Below are positions 3,798 through 22,123 of a stretch of 64,000 nt of DNA, piece by piece. Below the pieces are notes generated by a model. The model saw only the letters and a program-made list of their open reading frames with translations. It made no database searches and was not told the DNA's origin. Each line of letters starts with the position of its first letter. Position 1 is the stretch's first letter. Origin of the DNA: Maribacter sp. PR1 (GTDB lineage: Bacteria; Bacteroidota; Bacteroidia; Flavobacteriales; Flavobacteriaceae); assembly GCF_028464145.1 (NCBI RefSeq), contig NZ_JAQPCG010000003.1:456379-520378 (forward strand). The letters run 5' to 3'. The translations under genes were made by a program, and so were the position numbers.

Positions 3798-3836
3798 GGG
3801 GTAGTGACCTCATAGCTGCATAAAGCGACAACTTAG
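3798..3836 (+). repeat. Transposon left terminal inverted repeat (IRL, 39 bp)
   Basis: It begins GGGGTAGTGACC and ends CGACAACTTAG. It matches the reverse complement of 22085-22123 except at two bases near the outer end (GGGG versus GGCC) and one inner base (AAAGCG versus AAAACG). Length, the GG start and the TTAG-like inner end fit Tn3-family termini. Weaker similarity continues about 23 bp further inward (to ...AAACACTG). Confidence 0.93.
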
Positions 3837-3865
3837 CCCACAAGCCCTGTAAACACTGATATCGA

Positions 3866-3897
3866 ATTTATCTCAAATATAGCGTATTAAGATAAAT
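3866..3897. promoter_or_regulatory. Inverted repeat upstream of the transposase gene (possible operator)
   Basis: ATTTATCT at 3866-3873 is repeated inverted as AGATAAAT at 3890-3897, just before the transposase start at 3921. Position suggests control of transposase expression, for example by the resolvase or another repressor. No bound protein can be named from sequence alone. Confidence 0.4.
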
Positions 3898-3920
3898 ATG
3901 CTAATTTGTGGCAAAAACAC

Positions 3921-6815
3921 ATGGAACAAAACCAGTATCAGGATTGGTACCTGACCTACGATGAGTCAATATTGTTGAAGAATAAAAGCTTTCCCCATAA
4001 ACTGGCTTTTGCAGTCCAATTGAAACAATATTTATCCACAGGTTCATTTCCTAAAAGTAAATCAAGTTTGGTAAGTGGTCTGGTTTCCCATTTAAGTGAA
4101 CAGTTGGAGACCAATGAATCTATTTTAAATGAGTATGATTGGTCGCAAAGAACCGCAGAACGTCATCGTAAAGAAATATTAAAATTCTTGGGCGTTGAAA
4201 AAACAAATGAAGAACACCGCGAAGATCTTATCGATTTTTTGATTGACGACATCCTTCCCTTTGGAAGTACAAAAACAGAAATCGAAGATGTTTGCCTTAA
4301 ATGGTTCTTTGAACATAAACTTTCAGCTCCTACGGAAAAAGTACTTTCCCGTATAATTTCCACTGCACTCTCGAAATTTGAAAACAGATTTTTCGATCAG
4401 GTTGCATCATTGTTGGGAAGGGGTACAACGGAATTATTCGACCGTTGCCTGAGAAGCGATCCAGGCGAAAAGGGTTCGTTTACTTGGCTTCGTTCAGATC
4501 CTGGACGTGTTGGCCTTCTAACCGTTCTTGATGAGCTGGACAAATTGGCATTTATAGAGGATTGCGCAATTCCTATTCAAGAAATCGGTGGGATACATCC
4601 CAAGATTAGGGAAAGATTGTACAAAAGAATAGCTTCGGAATCCGCTTGGGAGATAAGGCGACACCCACCATATATTAGGGATACCCTGATGGGTGTCTTT
4701 CTTTTTTCCAGAAGGCAAAAAATCATAGATGACCTTGTGGATCTTTTCATTCTCATTGTGGGAAAACTATCAAAGAAGGCAAAAAAGAAAGTAGAGACCG
4801 CACTGGTAAAGGAATTGAAACGCGTTTATGGTAAGACGACAATATTGGCCCGAATCGCCGAGGCATCATTGAAGGACCCTAAAGGAACCATCAATAGGGT
4901 AATATTTCCCATTGCAAATAAATCGAAGCTTTCCGATATCGTCAAGGAGTATAAATATTCCGGTAAGGGTTTCAAAAATGAAATCCATGGATTGGTGCGT
5001 TCCAGTTATTCCTCACATTATCGGAGAATGGTCCCGAAAATATTGGGCAGTCTTACCTTCAGGTCGAACAACGATCTGCACGTACCTATTTTGGACGCGA
5101 TAGATTGGCTGTTGGAGAACCCTATGCCAAACTCAAAATTCTCAATGGACGATGACTCGATTCCCACTTCGGACATCATCAAGCCCAGCTTTGTAAAACT
5201 TGTCAAAGGGATGGGCAAAGGCGATATGGATCGGATAGACTATGAAATAGCAGTACTTGAAGCTTTGAGAAAGAGGCTCCGTTGCAAGGAAATATGGGTT
5301 GAAGGAGCCGATAGGTACCGTAATCCCGATGAGGATGTACCTAAAGACTTCAATATGAACAGGAAATTTTATTACGACCGGTTGGGCGTAGAGAACGACC
5401 CCGTGGAATTTACCAAGGGATTAAAGGAAGAAATGGAAATCGCACTGAGAACGTTAAATGAAAACTTGCCGTCCAACAAGTATGTAAGATTACGGCAAAG
5501 CGGCATCAAGAACATTGTTCTCTCCCCCATGGACCCGCTCGTGGACCCACCGAACATAAATGCGCTCAAGGGAGATGTACAATCCAGATGGCCAATGACA
5601 TCACTTTTGGAAATCCTTCGCGAAGCGGACAGTTGGTCCGGGTTCACAAAATTGTTCAAGAGTATCCGGACATCTGAACGTTTGACACCGGAACAGCTCA
5701 GAAAAAGACTATTGTTGGTTCTTTATGGGCTTGGAACCAATATGGGACTTAAAAGAATAGCGTCAGGTAATAATGTAAGCTACAAGGAGCTCCGTCATGT
5801 AAAGAATGTATATGTACACAAAGATTCCCTGCGCAGTGCCATTAGGGAAGTGGCCAATGGGGTATTCTCCGTAAAGGACACCAAACTCTGGGGCGAGGCA
5901 ACGACCTCATGTGCCTCCGATTCCAAAAAGTTCGGGTCCTGGGACCAGAACCTGATGGCGGAATGGCACATCCGGTATGGAGGAAGGGGCGTTATGATCT
6001 ATTGGCACGTGGACACGCGATCCACCTGCATCTATTCCCAACTAAAGAAATGTTCCTCATCAGAAGTGGCCAATATGATAGAAGGTGTACTCAAGCATTG
6101 TACCGATATGAAGGTGGAAAAACAGTTTGTGGACACCCACGGTCAGAGTGAGGTCGCGTTTGCTTTTTGCAAGCTCTTGGGGTTTGAACTAATGCCAAGG
6201 TTGAAGAATATTGCCTCCCAGAAACTTTACCTACCCGATATTTCCCTAAAGAAAGAACTTAAAAACCTTTTACCGATACTCAATAGAGGTATCAAATGGG
6301 AAATCATCGAGAGGCAATATGATGAAATGGTAAAATATACCGCTGCTTTGGAACAGGGTACCGCCGACCCTGAATCAATTTTAAAGAGGTTCACCAGGGG
6401 TAACGAGAGCCATCCGACATACAGGGCCCTGCAGGAACTAGGAAAGGCGGTGAAAACGATATTCCTTTGCAGGTACCTTGCCGATGGGGACATCAGACGT
6501 GAAATACACGGGGGGCTGAACGTGATAGAGAATTGGAACTCTGCCAACGGTTTCATTTTTTTTGGAAAAAGTGGTGAAGTTTCCTCGAACCGATTGGAAG
6601 AACAGGAACTATCCGTACTTGCACTTCATCTGCTCCAGAACTGTTTAGTCTATGTGAACACACTTATGATCCAACGTGTGGTTTCCGAGAACGGATGGAT
6701 GGACAGGTTTTCAAAAGAAGATTACCGAGCATTGAGCCCGTTGATACATGCACATGTGAACCCTTACGGGAAGTTTGAGCTTGATATGGACAAAAACCTC
6801 GGTCTGGCCGTGTAG
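3921..6815 (+). CDS. tnpA: Tn3-family DDE transposase
   Basis: This 964-aa protein catalyses replicative transposition by acting on the 39-bp inverted repeats. The C-terminal catalytic core shows the expected acidic triad: Asp667 in SCASDSKKF, Asp738 in VDTHGQSE and Glu870 in GLNVIENWN. The family tail HAHVNPYGKFELDMD is also present. The N-terminal half fits the Tn3 DNA-binding region and the length is typical of the family (about 950-1000 aa). The ATG at 3921 is preferred to an in-frame TTG at 3906, because MEQNQYQDWYLT is a normal family beginning. It lies 85 bp inside the left repeat. The gene looks intact and presumably active. Confidence 0.95.
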   Translation: MEQNQYQDWYLTYDESILLKNKSFPHKLAFAVQLKQYLSTGSFPKSKSSLVSGLVSHLSEQLETNESILNEYDWSQRTAERHRKEILKFLGVEKTNEEHREDLIDFLIDDILPFGSTKTEIEDVCLKWFFEHKLSAPTEKVLSRIISTALSKFENRFFDQVASLLGRGTTELFDRCLRSDPGEKGSFTWLRSDPGRVGLLTVLDELDKLAFIEDCAIPIQEIGGIHPKIRERLYKRIASESAWEIRRHPPYIRDTLMGVFLFSRRQKIIDDLVDLFILIVGKLSKKAKKKVETALVKELKRVYGKTTILARIAEASLKDPKGTINRVIFPIANKSKLSDIVKEYKYSGKGFKNEIHGLVRSSYSSHYRRMVPKILGSLTFRSNNDLHVPILDAIDWLLENPMPNSKFSMDDDSIPTSDIIKPSFVKLVKGMGKGDMDRIDYEIAVLEALRKRLRCKEIWVEGADRYRNPDEDVPKDFNMNRKFYYDRLGVENDPVEFTKGLKEEMEIALRTLNENLPSNKYVRLRQSGIKNIVLSPMDPLVDPPNINALKGDVQSRWPMTSLLEILREADSWSGFTKLFKSIRTSERLTPEQLRKRLLLVLYGLGTNMGLKRIASGNNVSYKELRHVKNVYVHKDSLRSAIREVANGVFSVKDTKLWGEATTSCASDSKKFGSWDQNLMAEWHIRYGGRGVMIYWHVDTRSTCIYSQLKKCSSSEVANMIEGVLKHCTDMKVEKQFVDTHGQSEVAFAFCKLLGFELMPRLKNIASQKLYLPDISLKKELKNLLPILNRGIKWEIIERQYDEMVKYTAALEQGTADPESILKRFTRGNESHPTYRALQELGKAVKTIFLCRYLADGDIRREIHGGLNVIENWNSANGFIFFGKSGEVSSNRLEEQELSVLALHLLQNCLVYVNTLMIQRVVSENGWMDRFSKEDYRALSPLIHAHVNPYGKFELDMDKNLGLAV

Positions 6816-6961
6816 GGTAATCATCCTCTGTACCAAAAATGGTTCCTTTCATGAAACTCAATTAGTTCATCTGAAATTAAATTAGCTTACAGACTTTTTA
6901 TTTTAAGAGGTTGTCATGAATAATTAAGATATATTCCAAATAACGCAAAATACTCTAAAAA

Positions 6962-21538: not shown

Positions 21539-21588
21539 AAAGTCCGGTATTATAATATGCGGTGCCGTCAAAAAATGGATACCACCAT

Positions 21589-21813
21589 TTATCCCTTGTA
21601 TTGGTTTCTCCTATGTTTTTTCCAGTTCCTGGTACGTTTTGAATACTTCGAGTTGGTCGTTTCAATCCCGTGGGGAAAACAGTAACAACAGCCACCCATC
21701 TTAAGATAGTTGTCAATCCTTGATAAACGAACATTGGATATTTTCTTTGGAAAATCAATATGTCCTTCAGGGGTAAGTCCAAAAGCCCTTTCAAATCGTT
21801 TCGTATATTTCAC
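21589..21813 (-). CDS. Small 74-aa protein, unknown
   Basis: It starts with GTG at 21813 (MKYTKRFERAF). It contains a GGCCYCFPHG motif and a strongly basic end (RNWKKHRRNQYKG), suggesting nucleic-acid contact. It faces the ATPase gene convergently and is preceded by a perfect hairpin. A longer overlapping frame (21531-21794) exists but looks like a shadow. Moderate confidence. Confidence 0.5.
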   Translation of the reverse strand: MKYTKRFERAFGLTPEGHIDFPKKISNVRLSRIDNYLKMGGCCYCFPHGIETTNSKYSKRTRNWKKHRRNQYKG

Positions 21814-21817
21814 GATT

Positions 21818-21849
21818 TCAATGTTTTAAGTGAATACTTAAAACATTGA
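21818..21849. promoter_or_regulatory. Perfect 14-bp inverted repeat near the right end of the transposon
   Basis: TCAATGTTTTAAGT (21818-21831), a GAAT loop and ACTTAAAACATTGA form a perfect hairpin immediately upstream of the small basic protein gene. It could be an operator or a transcript structure blocking read-through into the passenger genes. The rest of 21850-22084 shows no gene. Confidence 0.55.
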
Positions 21850-22084
21850 GCCTTTTAGGAATTTGGAAAGAAACATAATCGGTTGATTTCCGTAAAGATA
21901 GTCCATAAAACAGTTTGGGCACAAGTTATATTCAAAAGCTATGAAATGGTAGTGTAATCCCGAAACAAACGAATGTTCTTAAGCATTTGCAGAATAGTAG
22001 TTTGGTTAATCCAATTGGACTTTTGGCCAACTTTTGAGATGTAACCATTGTATAAGAAGTGCCAGTGTTTTCAGTACCTGTGAG

Positions 22085-22123
22085 CTAAGTTGTCGTTTTA
22101 TGCAGCTATGAGGTCACTAGGCC
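22085..22123 (-). repeat. Transposon right terminal inverted repeat (IRR, 39 bp)
   Basis: It is the inverted counterpart of 3798-3836. Read from outside inward it begins GGCCTAGTGACC and ends CGACAACTTAG. It is followed by the second TTTGA copy at 22124-22128. It also supplies the premature stop (TAG at 22117-22119) of the interrupted pump gene. Confidence 0.93.

What the first reader, a model, noticed from the sequence alone, without database searches (positions are those of the whole stretch)
3798..22123. An 18.3-kb Tn3-family transposon carries a complete [NiFe]-hydrogenase operon
Sequence shows 39-bp terminal inverted repeats, a TTTGA duplication, an intact DDE transposase and a serine resolvase enclosing hupS, hupL, hupD, hypABFCDE, TPR and NHL partners and a nickel-type transporter. 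Tn3-family cargo is normally resistance or catabolic genes; a self-contained hydrogen-oxidising enzyme with its own maturation and nickel supply would make H2 oxidation a transposable trait. I am not aware of a described example.
Basis: partly seen in the sequence, partly recalled or inferred. Interest (0 to 1): 0.95.

Follow-up and report, generated by a model that had tools for sequence, protein, structure and literature searches.

The report
Hydrogenase transposon with swappable cargo
An 18-kb jumping element carries a gene set predicted to let bacteria burn hydrogen gas, sits at three different places in two related species, and the same cargo lies inside a different jumping backbone in a third species, where it was likely swapped in whole by the elements' own recombinase.

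Summary
Confirmed, and larger than reported. Window 3798-22123 is an 18,326-bp Tn3-family unit transposon (TTTGA duplication; ends match at 37 of 40 positions) enclosing a Huc-type [NiFe]-hydrogenase locus. A second species of the genus (G007, one contig) holds two copies identical over all 18,326 bp at unrelated sites, plus the empty site of the window's copy: flanks 100% and 99.98% identical, one TTTGA. At the one background locus sampled the two species are 80% identical, so sharing is recent.

[Muricauda] okinawensis carries the same 13.2-kb cargo (two base differences) in a Tn3 backbone about 82% identical. The switches fall within 5 and 9 bp, at the centres of two 28-bp resolvase-type core sites: after tnpA (centre TT) and at inferred res site I (centre GC). 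All nine distinct elements examined have this pair, around cargo ends of four kinds. I infer natural recombinase-mediated cassette exchange: incompatible centres keep cargo from being lost but let it be replaced whole.

Single-site shuffling at res and an IS1071-flanked hydrogenase cassette are prior art; a unit Tn3 hydrogenase transposon and the two-site arrangement were not found in my ten literature searches. H2 oxidation and exchange are untested biochemically.

The parts
3793..3797 (.). target-site duplication TTTGA, left
   Evidence: single copy in the G007 empty site
3798..3837 (+). IRL, terminal inverted repeat (first 40 nt)
   Evidence: 37 of 40 match IRR; 62-nt arm 87%
3906..6815 (+). 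tnpA, Tn3-family DDE transposase (969 aa as called from TTG)
   Evidence: NF033527 822 bits; PF01526, PF13700; Tn4430 TnpA alignment
6830..6857 (+). left resolvase-type core site, centre TT: GTACCAAAAATGG-TT-CCTTTCATGAAAC
   Evidence: second-best site of the element with a matrix built from right half-sites only, 16.5 vs next 10.5; same place and centre in 9 of 9 elements
6845..20045 (+). exchangeable cargo module, 13.2 kb, hydrogenase locus
   Evidence: two base differences from M. okinawensis between the switch points, inside a backbone about 82% identical
7024..7986 (+). hupS, [NiFe]-hydrogenase small subunit
   Evidence: 464.5 bits to Huc small subunit 7uur
8008..9600 (+). hupL, [NiFe]-hydrogenase large subunit
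   Evidence: 675.6 bits to Huc large subunit 7uus, next family 214.6
9680..10147 (+). hupD, maturation endopeptidase
   Evidence: TIGR00072 above cut-off
10156..10476 (+). unknown 106-aa protein
   Evidence: no hit in NCBIfam, Pfam or PDB sequences
10473..10730 (+). unknown 85-aa protein
   Evidence: no hit in NCBIfam, Pfam or PDB sequences
10705..12186 (+).
   Evidence: no NCBIfam or Pfam hit at 1e-3
12194..12541 (+). hypA
   Evidence: PF01155 above cut-off; NCBIfam TIGR00100 below its cut-off (69.9 vs 88.1)
12531..13271 (+). hypB
   Evidence: TIGR00073 265 bits
13279..15540 (+). hypF
   Evidence: TIGR00143 691 bits
15544..15819 (+). hypC
   Evidence: PF01455, TIGR00074
15917..17011 (+). hypD
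   Evidence: TIGR00075 503 bits; only copy detected in the genome
17001..18083 (+). hypE (family match begins at residue 30, so the start is probably later)
   Evidence: TIGR02124 424 bits
18085..19179 (+). NHL-repeat protein
   Evidence: PF01436 51.7 bits; no NCBIfam hit
19176..19883 (-). small membrane transporter, tentatively nickel/cobalt
   Evidence: DsbD_2 above cut-off, NicO below cut-off; homologous DNA adjoins hydrogenase loci in relatives
20033..20060 (+). right core site = inferred res site I, centre GC: GTCCTATTAATCG-GC-CGTTTTTCGGTAC
20061..20150 (+). inferred accessory part of res, upstream of tnpR
   Evidence: position and similarity between backbones; subsites not mapped
20151..20732 (+). 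tnpR, serine resolvase/invertase
   Evidence: PF00239; PDB best match a DNA invertase, 124 bits, gamma-delta resolvase 93
20747..21538 (+). AAA ATPase of the backbone, role unknown
   Evidence: PF13304/PF13175; 93.9-100% identical in six of the eight other elements; not detected in G085; the Arenibacter stretch ends before that place
22084..22123 (-). IRR, terminal inverted repeat (last 40 nt)
22124..22128 (.). target-site duplication TTTGA, right
1041..3716 (-). split cusA-like RND gene, C-terminal part (target)
   Evidence: PF00873; rejoined frame; uninterrupted in G007
22117..23124 (-). split cusA-like RND gene, N-terminal part (target)
   Evidence: PF00873

Best explanation
This is an 18,326-bp Tn3-family transposon whose cargo, a Huc-type [NiFe]-hydrogenase locus predicted to let its host oxidise H2, is bounded by two resolvase-type core sites at which the whole cargo was likely exchanged between transposon backbones by the element's serine recombinase. 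SHOWN by sequence: three identical copies at three unrelated sites in two species; the empty site with a single TTTGA; a fourth insertion of the same cargo in another genus; a switch from near-identical cargo to an about 82% identical backbone within 5 bp on the left and 9 bp on the right; and the TT/GC pair of 28-bp core-like sites in all nine elements examined. INFERRED: (1) TnpA moves the element by replicative paste-and-copy, and TnpR resolves cointegrates at the GC site (res site I). (2) When two such elements meet in one cell, TnpR recombines GC with GC and TT with TT; because the central two bases differ, TT cannot pair with GC, so cargo is not deleted but can be replaced by double exchange in fixed orientation, as in laboratory recombinase-mediated cassette exchange. 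(3) The hydrogenase, matured by HypABCDEF and HupD, would feed electrons from H2 into the respiratory quinone pool, as shown for Huc.
For: Mobility: copies 100% identical over 18,326 bp in G007 against 80% identity at one 6-kb background locus; empty site with flanks 100% over 3.8 kb and 99.98% over 28 kb. In G007 the duplications are crossed between the two inverted copies (ATATT..TGTAA and TGTAA..ATATT); the crossed flank pairs rejoin an FKBP-type gene (PF00254) and a lipoprotein-like gene (by eye): two further insertion sites plus an inversion. M. okinawensis element 18,688 bp, duplication TATTA. Exchange: cargo 13,207 bp with 2 base differences between the switch points (a third listed difference is a cut-edge base) against backbone segments 81.9, 81.8, 84.6 and 81.0% identical; the first 600 bp on the left gave no such alignment. 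A matrix from six of eight distinct right half-sites picks the left site second-best in the window's element: 16.5, next 10.5; 2 of 300 shuffles and none of 325,129 background positions (best 15.8) reach 16.5. Left sites of the other eight elements score 17.8-25.9. Centres TT in 9 of 9, GC in 9 of 9. On the right, all four combinations of {alpha, beta backbone} x {hydrogenase, XerA cargo} occur. Enzyme: Huc is by far the closest solved structure.
Against: No biochemistry. The left site has no recognised accessory subsites, which wild-type Tn3-type resolvases normally need (recalled), so left-left recombination may be inefficient. The window's own left site is the weakest of the nine (16.5), and 2 of 300 shuffles reach that score. 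On the left, not all backbone x cargo combinations were seen (alpha with XerA cargo is missing). The right half-sites used for the matrix were picked by eye at the breakpoints, so only the left site is an independent test. Relatives at 56% (Chryseobacterium, L113) and 52% (Trichlorobacter, L114) TnpA identity have no site above 12.5 with this matrix; a 48% relative (L092) tops at 13.8; a partial 67% relative (L084) has one at 19.3 with centre AA, about 0.9 kb past tnpA, and no GC partner in the 4.8 kb held. So the pair may be confined to a small Flavobacteriaceae clade. Five of nine elements share one cargo lineage (XerA type), so distinct cargo ends number four. The Arenibacter right end is cut by a contig end, and G029's cargo is contiguous only if its contig is circular.
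Confidence: 0.72

Rival explanations
1. The transposon moves, but cargo was swapped between backbones by RecA-dependent double crossover in short shared stretches; the recombinase took no part and the core-like sites are incidental.
For: Both switch points lie in short identical stretches (5 and 9 bp); backbones share about 82% identity.
Against: 5-9 bp is too short for ordinary homologous recombination (recalled), while exact tracts of up to 29 bp (left) and 42 bp (right, only about 55 bp from the switch) exist in the two backbones and were not the switch points. The left switch falls on a site found by a matrix that did not use it, and the right switch recurs at the same bases with a second cargo.
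Confidence: 0.13
2. Resolvase acts only at the right (res) site, joining replicons by single-site exchange as already described for Tn3 elements; the left junction came from a separate unrelated event.
For: Single-site exchange at res site I is described (PMC7157771, passages); elements C13 and G029 have left beta and right alpha ends, as one right-side exchange would give.
Against: The left switch in M. okinawensis falls at the centre of an independently found site, which is kept in all nine elements.
Confidence: 0.12
3. Hydrogenase carried as passive freight: the element is mobile but the enzyme is not expressed or not functional in these hosts.
For: Robiginitalea biformata, a flavobacterium with a different hydrogenase group (1l), did not substantially take up H2 in culture (PMC10305171, passages). 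No HucM-like scaffold was recognised: the two small unknown proteins have no PDB sequence match.
Against: Structural and maturation genes are open; the closest solved relative is the active Huc; two base differences in 13.2 kb between two genera fit recent transfer of an intact locus.
Confidence: 0.15
4. Assembly artefact or cross-contamination.
For: G000 is a 23-contig draft; identity to G007 is 100% across the element; no reads were available.
Against: Clean empty site and duplication; different sites in G007, a one-contig genome; M. okinawensis is an independent named record.
Confidence: 0.02

Closest known systems
Tn3-family unit transposons with resolvase-mediated module exchange at res site I (Tn5501/Tn4662a, TnTsp1; PMC7157771)
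   Same: Replicative Tn3 family, serine resolvase, res next to tnpR, hybrid elements whose junction lies at the res site I dinucleotide (passages).
   Different: There one site exchanges one arm of the element. Here a second core site with a different centre lies after tnpA, so a 3-26 kb cargo is bounded at both ends and appears exchanged whole.
IS1071-flanked hyp/hox cassette in island CMGI-3, Cupriavidus metallidurans CH34 (PMC2864759)
   Same: Hydrogenase and maturation genes carried between Tn3-family (IS1071) sequences (passages).
   Different: Separate IS elements inside a Tn4371-type island; other hydrogenase classes (MBH/SH). Here a single unit transposon with its own resolvase and a Huc-type enzyme.
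Huc, group 2a [NiFe]-hydrogenase of Mycobacterium smegmatis (PDB 7uus, 7uur; PMC10017518, PMC7784904)
   Same: Closest solved relatives of both subunits; NHL-repeat proteins often near huc genes (passages).
   Different: No HucM homologue recognised here; sits in a transposon. Plasmid-borne group 2a enzymes are known, e.g. Sphingopyxis alaskensis (passages).
pdif / Xer modules of Acinetobacter (PMC12907356, abstract start in the listing; cited in PMC9501444, passages)
   Same: Exchangeable gene modules bounded by recombination sites.
   Different: Host XerC/XerD and dif-like sites; here a transposon-coded serine recombinase (inferred) and a fixed TT/GC pair inside a Tn3 backbone.

Membership tests
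Tn3-family transposon | Tn3-type DDE transposase | tested here: met
   NF033527 822 bits vs cut-off 500; PF01526 complete
Tn3-family transposon | about 38-40 bp terminal inverted repeats and 5-bp target duplication | tested here: met
   TTTGA; also TATTA in M. okinawensis
Tn3-family transposon | resolution module: resolvase plus res | tested here: met
   PF00239; site I-like core upstream of tnpR; subsites II/III not mapped
Tn3-family transposon | transposition at several sites | tested here: met
   three sites, identical copies, plus empty site
Group 2a (Huc) [NiFe]-hydrogenase | large and small subunits closest to Huc, terminal cysteine motifs conserved | tested here: met
   alignments to 7uus (RICGICG and DSCLVCTVH identical) and 7uur; motif roles recalled; formal HydDB class not available here
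Group 2a (Huc) [NiFe]-hydrogenase | small subunit without Tat signal | tested here: met
   HupS starts MANVLWLQGGACSGN, aligned from residue 2; the criterion itself is recalled
Group 2a (Huc) [NiFe]-hydrogenase | high-affinity H2 oxidation to menaquinone | not testable with these tools
   needs gas chromatography; known for Huc (PMC10017518, passages)
Recombinase-mediated cassette exchange (as a mechanism) | cargo bounded by two heterospecific core sites | tested here: met
   TT left and GC right in 9 of 9 elements; sites are predicted from sequence
Recombinase-mediated cassette exchange (as a mechanism) | switch points at the site centres on both sides | tested here: met
   GGTTC (5 bp) and GGCCGTTTT (9 bp)
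Recombinase-mediated cassette exchange (as a mechanism) | recombinase acts on like pairs only | not testable with these tools
   needs in vitro or two-plasmid assay
Integron | integron integrase in the hydrogenase cargo | tested here: not met
   no tyrosine recombinase among the 14 cargo proteins scanned with Pfam; attC sites not searched; a XerA-type gene occurs in the other cargo lineage
ICE (Tn4371 type) | conjugation genes and phage-type integrase within the element | tested here: not met
   none among the 17 element proteins scanned with Pfam

The most novel reading that the evidence does not exclude
A transposon-coded natural cassette-exchange machine: Tn3 backbones in Flavobacteriaceae keep two mutually incompatible resolvase sites (TT after tnpA, GC at res) as a universal cargo dock, so whole operons of 3-26 kb, here H2 oxidation, elsewhere sugar use, restriction-modification, metal efflux, are traded as plug-in modules between transposons, plasmids and genera without being lost during cointegrate resolution.
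Probability: 0.6. Interest if true: 0.92.

Novelty: new variant of a known kind. Interest (0 to 1): 0.84.

Why it matters
Hydrogen oxidation genes are scattered in this group: HypD occurs in 5 of 36 genomes of the genus, and a close HupL (86-100%) in 15 of 397 genomes drawn from the family. A transposon that carries structural and maturation genes together, present at one site in one genome and absent from it in the next, gives a concrete route: one event could turn an ordinary heterotroph into a predicted H2 oxidiser. If the two-site dock works as inferred, Tn3 transposons can replace large cargos cleanly, which would explain mosaic elements, make cargo exchange predictable from two short sequences, and offer a natural counterpart to engineered cassette exchange. 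Both claims are directly testable with a two-plasmid assay and a gas chromatograph.

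Tried and rejected
Direct repeats as cargo borders: only weak repeats; rejected in favour of the near-palindromic core sites. Host fixed-locus reading: G002 and G023 share a locus (85.5% over 7 kb upstream of hupS) without tnpA/tnpR in the 20 kb fetched, but the cluster is only 70-80% identical to the cargo, so it is neither source nor refutation. Donor search: among ten HupL genes compared with the window's, G007 and M. okinawensis are identical; the nearest other is G312 (97.4%; DNA about 79% over element positions 3122-16123; no tnpA/tnpR in the 20 kb fetched), too far to be the direct donor; the HupL tree is mostly unresolved. 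G085 carries a related transposon with a sugar operon and, on another contig, a hydrogenase cluster without tnpA/tnpR; its two element ends have unlike 5-mers (ATGTT/TCAAA), so no duplication could be shown. The two plasmids share one insertion site (ATATA) with cargos of 2.9 and 19.3 kb, but their cargo-side half-sites are the same, so the change lies inside the cargo and is not counted as cassette exchange. tnpA survey at E <= 1e-100: 2 of 397 family genomes, 4 of 36 genus, 3 of 71 and 2 of 18 in the genera of G149 and G150; sets overlap and include G000. Not among the nine: a third copy in G149 (C1:1213824) that ends at a contig edge inside the left site; G014 (partial, 67%); G571 (48%, one stop); G496, whose coordinates match the Flagellimonas plasmid to within 6 bases and which I did not fetch. 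The nine count the three identical window/G007 copies once. Literature: ten searches gave no Tn3 unit transposon with hydrogenase and no natural two-site resolvase cassette exchange in the titles and abstracts listed or the passages read; the library lacks most subscription journals. Kholodii 2001 was seen only as a citation. HucM search by sequence gave nothing. No structure prediction was run. On re-checking I lowered the homologous-recombination rival from 0.15 to 0.13 because longer exact tracts were measured and not used.

Full report
OBSERVATION. Window 3798-22123 is a Tn3-family unit transposon of 18,326 bp. The ends match at 37 of the first 40 positions, 62-nt arms are 87% complementary, and TTTGA flanks both ends. 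It encodes a full-length Tn3 transposase, a serine resolvase and an AAA ATPase. Between tnpA and tnpR lie hupS, hupL, hupD, two small unknown genes, a 493-aa protein, hypA, B, F, C, D, E, an NHL-repeat protein and, reversed, a small transporter. The 493-aa protein is not confirmed as TPR, and the transporter is only tentatively a nickel transporter. The element splits a cusA-like RND gene.

MOBILITY. In its own genome (G000, 23 contigs) the end motif occurs only at the two ends of this element. In 149 genomes searched (the own one and relatives), 14 match HupL and 6 the end motif; only G007, a one-contig genome of another species in the same genus, has the element again, twice. Both copies are identical to the window's element over all 18,326 bp. 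The 2.5-kb flanks of the three copies are unrelated. At one 6-kb background locus the two species are 80% identical, so the element was shared recently. G007 also holds the empty counterpart of the window's site: window 1-3800 at 100% and 22122-50127 at 99.98% run on without interruption, with one TTTGA. In G007 the two copies are inverted to each other and their duplications are crossed; crossing the flanks restores an FKBP-type gene (PF00254) and a lipoprotein-like gene (by eye). Replicative transposition within one molecule, or recombination between two inverted copies, would leave this; the data do not separate the two. The genus contains a genome whose contig 22 has the length of a Maribacter sp. 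4G9 contig found (40,049 bases), so I take it to be Maribacter; this is inference.

ENZYME. HupL matches Huc of Mycobacterium smegmatis at 675.6 bits, the next family at 214.6; HupS matches Huc at 464.5 bits. The HupL alignment ends where the solved Huc chain ends, at a histidine, followed here by a 15-residue tail for HupD to remove (inferred). Huc reduces menaquinone with electrons from atmospheric H2 (PMC10017518, passages), and group 2a enzymes take up atmospheric H2 in growing bacteria (PMC7784904, PMC10305171, passages). HypD occurs in 5 of 36 genomes of the genus, in G000 and G007 only inside the element; so the element likely carries its hosts' only maturation set. H2 oxidation by these hosts is predicted, not shown.

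CARGO EXCHANGE. [Muricauda] okinawensis 81s02 carries an 18,688-bp element with duplication TATTA. Its cargo differs from the window's at two bases in 13.2 kb, while the alignable backbone on either side is 81-85% identical. The switch falls within GGTTC on the left and GGCCGTTTT on the right. Both intervals are centres of 28-bp near-palindromes (half-site roughly GTnCCRWAAANNG, by eye). The right one lies where res site I of Tn3 elements would lie, upstream of tnpR; the left one starts 14 bp after the tnpA stop. A matrix built from six of the eight distinct right half-sites finds the left site as second-best place in the window's element (16.5; next 10.5). Two of 300 shuffles reach that score, and none of 325,129 background positions (best 15.8). 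Left sites in the other eight elements score 17.8-25.9. The nine distinct elements are: window/G007, M. okinawensis C1, M. okinawensis C13, G029, Arenibacter sp. F20364, Allomuricauda nanhaiensis, G085, a Flagellimonas marinaquae plasmid and pSMS7. All nine have TT left and GC right. Cargos run from 2.9 to 26.3 kb (4.5 kb for G029 if its contig is circular). Proteins tested include a ROK kinase, sugar isomerase-like and symporter set in G085, a type III restriction-modification pair in A. nanhaiensis, and a P-type metal ATPase in Arenibacter. On the right side, hydrogenase and XerA-type cargos each occur with both backbones. The Arenibacter cargo holds three further core sites (centres TT, AA, GC; scores 19.5-25.8), which suggests stacked modules. 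The two backbones share exact tracts of up to 29 and 42 bp that were not the switch points, which speaks against ordinary homologous recombination.

MECHANISM. I infer that the serine recombinase, closest among solved structures to a DNA invertase (124 bits; gamma-delta resolvase 93), recombines like centres only. That the two central bases must match is recalled knowledge of serine recombinases. With TT on one side and GC on the other the cargo cannot be cut out by recombination between its own borders. Two elements in one cell can exchange cargo by a GC x GC and a TT x TT event, keeping orientation. Plasmids typed as mobilizable that carry this backbone would bring elements together. Weak points: the left site lacks known accessory subsites; the window's left site is the weakest of the nine; five of nine elements share one cargo lineage; and relatives at 48-56% transposase identity have no site above 13.8, while a partial 67% relative has one at 19.3 (centre AA) without a GC partner in the short stretch held.

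PRIOR ART. Module exchange at res site I is described (PMC7157771, passages), as is the idea of resolvase shuffling (Kholodii 2001, seen only as a citation). A hyp/hox cassette flanked by IS1071, a Tn3-family element in that paper's table, is described in C. metallidurans (PMC2864759, passages). Plasmid-borne hydrogenases are known (PMC10305171, PMC4781885, passages). I did not find a Tn3 unit transposon carrying a hydrogenase, nor a natural two-site resolvase cassette exchange, in searches.

VERDICT. The element is a new variant of a known kind: Tn3 family by the features tested, with an unusual metabolic cargo and an apparently new two-site cargo dock whose biochemistry is untested.

Noticed in passing
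window 1-50127 (outside the element): A stretch with metal-efflux genes is 99.98-100% identical to G007 although one background locus is 80% identical: a recently shared island, independent of the transposon.
   Followed up: partly
window 24886-26738 and 34589-36441: Two regions about 79.6% identical to each other, inferred from cross-matches of each to the other's G007 counterpart; the first overlaps a gene that looks like a metal ATPase by eye.
   Followed up: no
L071 10785-11603; L077 4680-5498 (-); also L093, L112: A XerA/integron-integrase-like tyrosine recombinase (NF040815 238.5 bits, cut-off 220, tested for L077) lies just before res in the other cargo lineage. After the left site these elements share TACAACG and then diverge, as if a second, integron-like acquisition point sat inside the cargo.
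   Followed up: partly
Arenibacter sp. F20364, L073/L074: One cargo holds five core sites (TT, TT, AA, GC, GC), suggesting stacked modules; the direct TT pair would predict a 3.4-kb excisable circle.
   Followed up: partly
L093 and L094/L112: The same transposon backbone at the same ATATA site on two related plasmids from Flagellimonas marinaquae and Arenibacter algicola carries 2.9 and 19.3 kb of cargo; the former includes an annotated erm(F).
   Followed up: partly
window 20747-21538: An AAA ATPase next to tnpR is kept in six of the eight other elements (93.9-100%) but not detected in G085; its role in this transposon family is unknown.
   Followed up: no
window 10156-10730: Two small overlapping genes after hupD match no family or solved chain; possible stand-ins for the HucM scaffold, untested.
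   Followed up: no
L072, end: The M. okinawensis contig C1 ends at the left core site of a third element copy (GGTTC), likely an assembly break caused by repeated backbones.
   Followed up: no
L084 580-607: A partial Tn3 transposase relative (67%) in G014 has a core-like site scoring 19.3 with centre AA (TT read in the transposase direction), about 0.9 kb past the gene.
   Followed up: no
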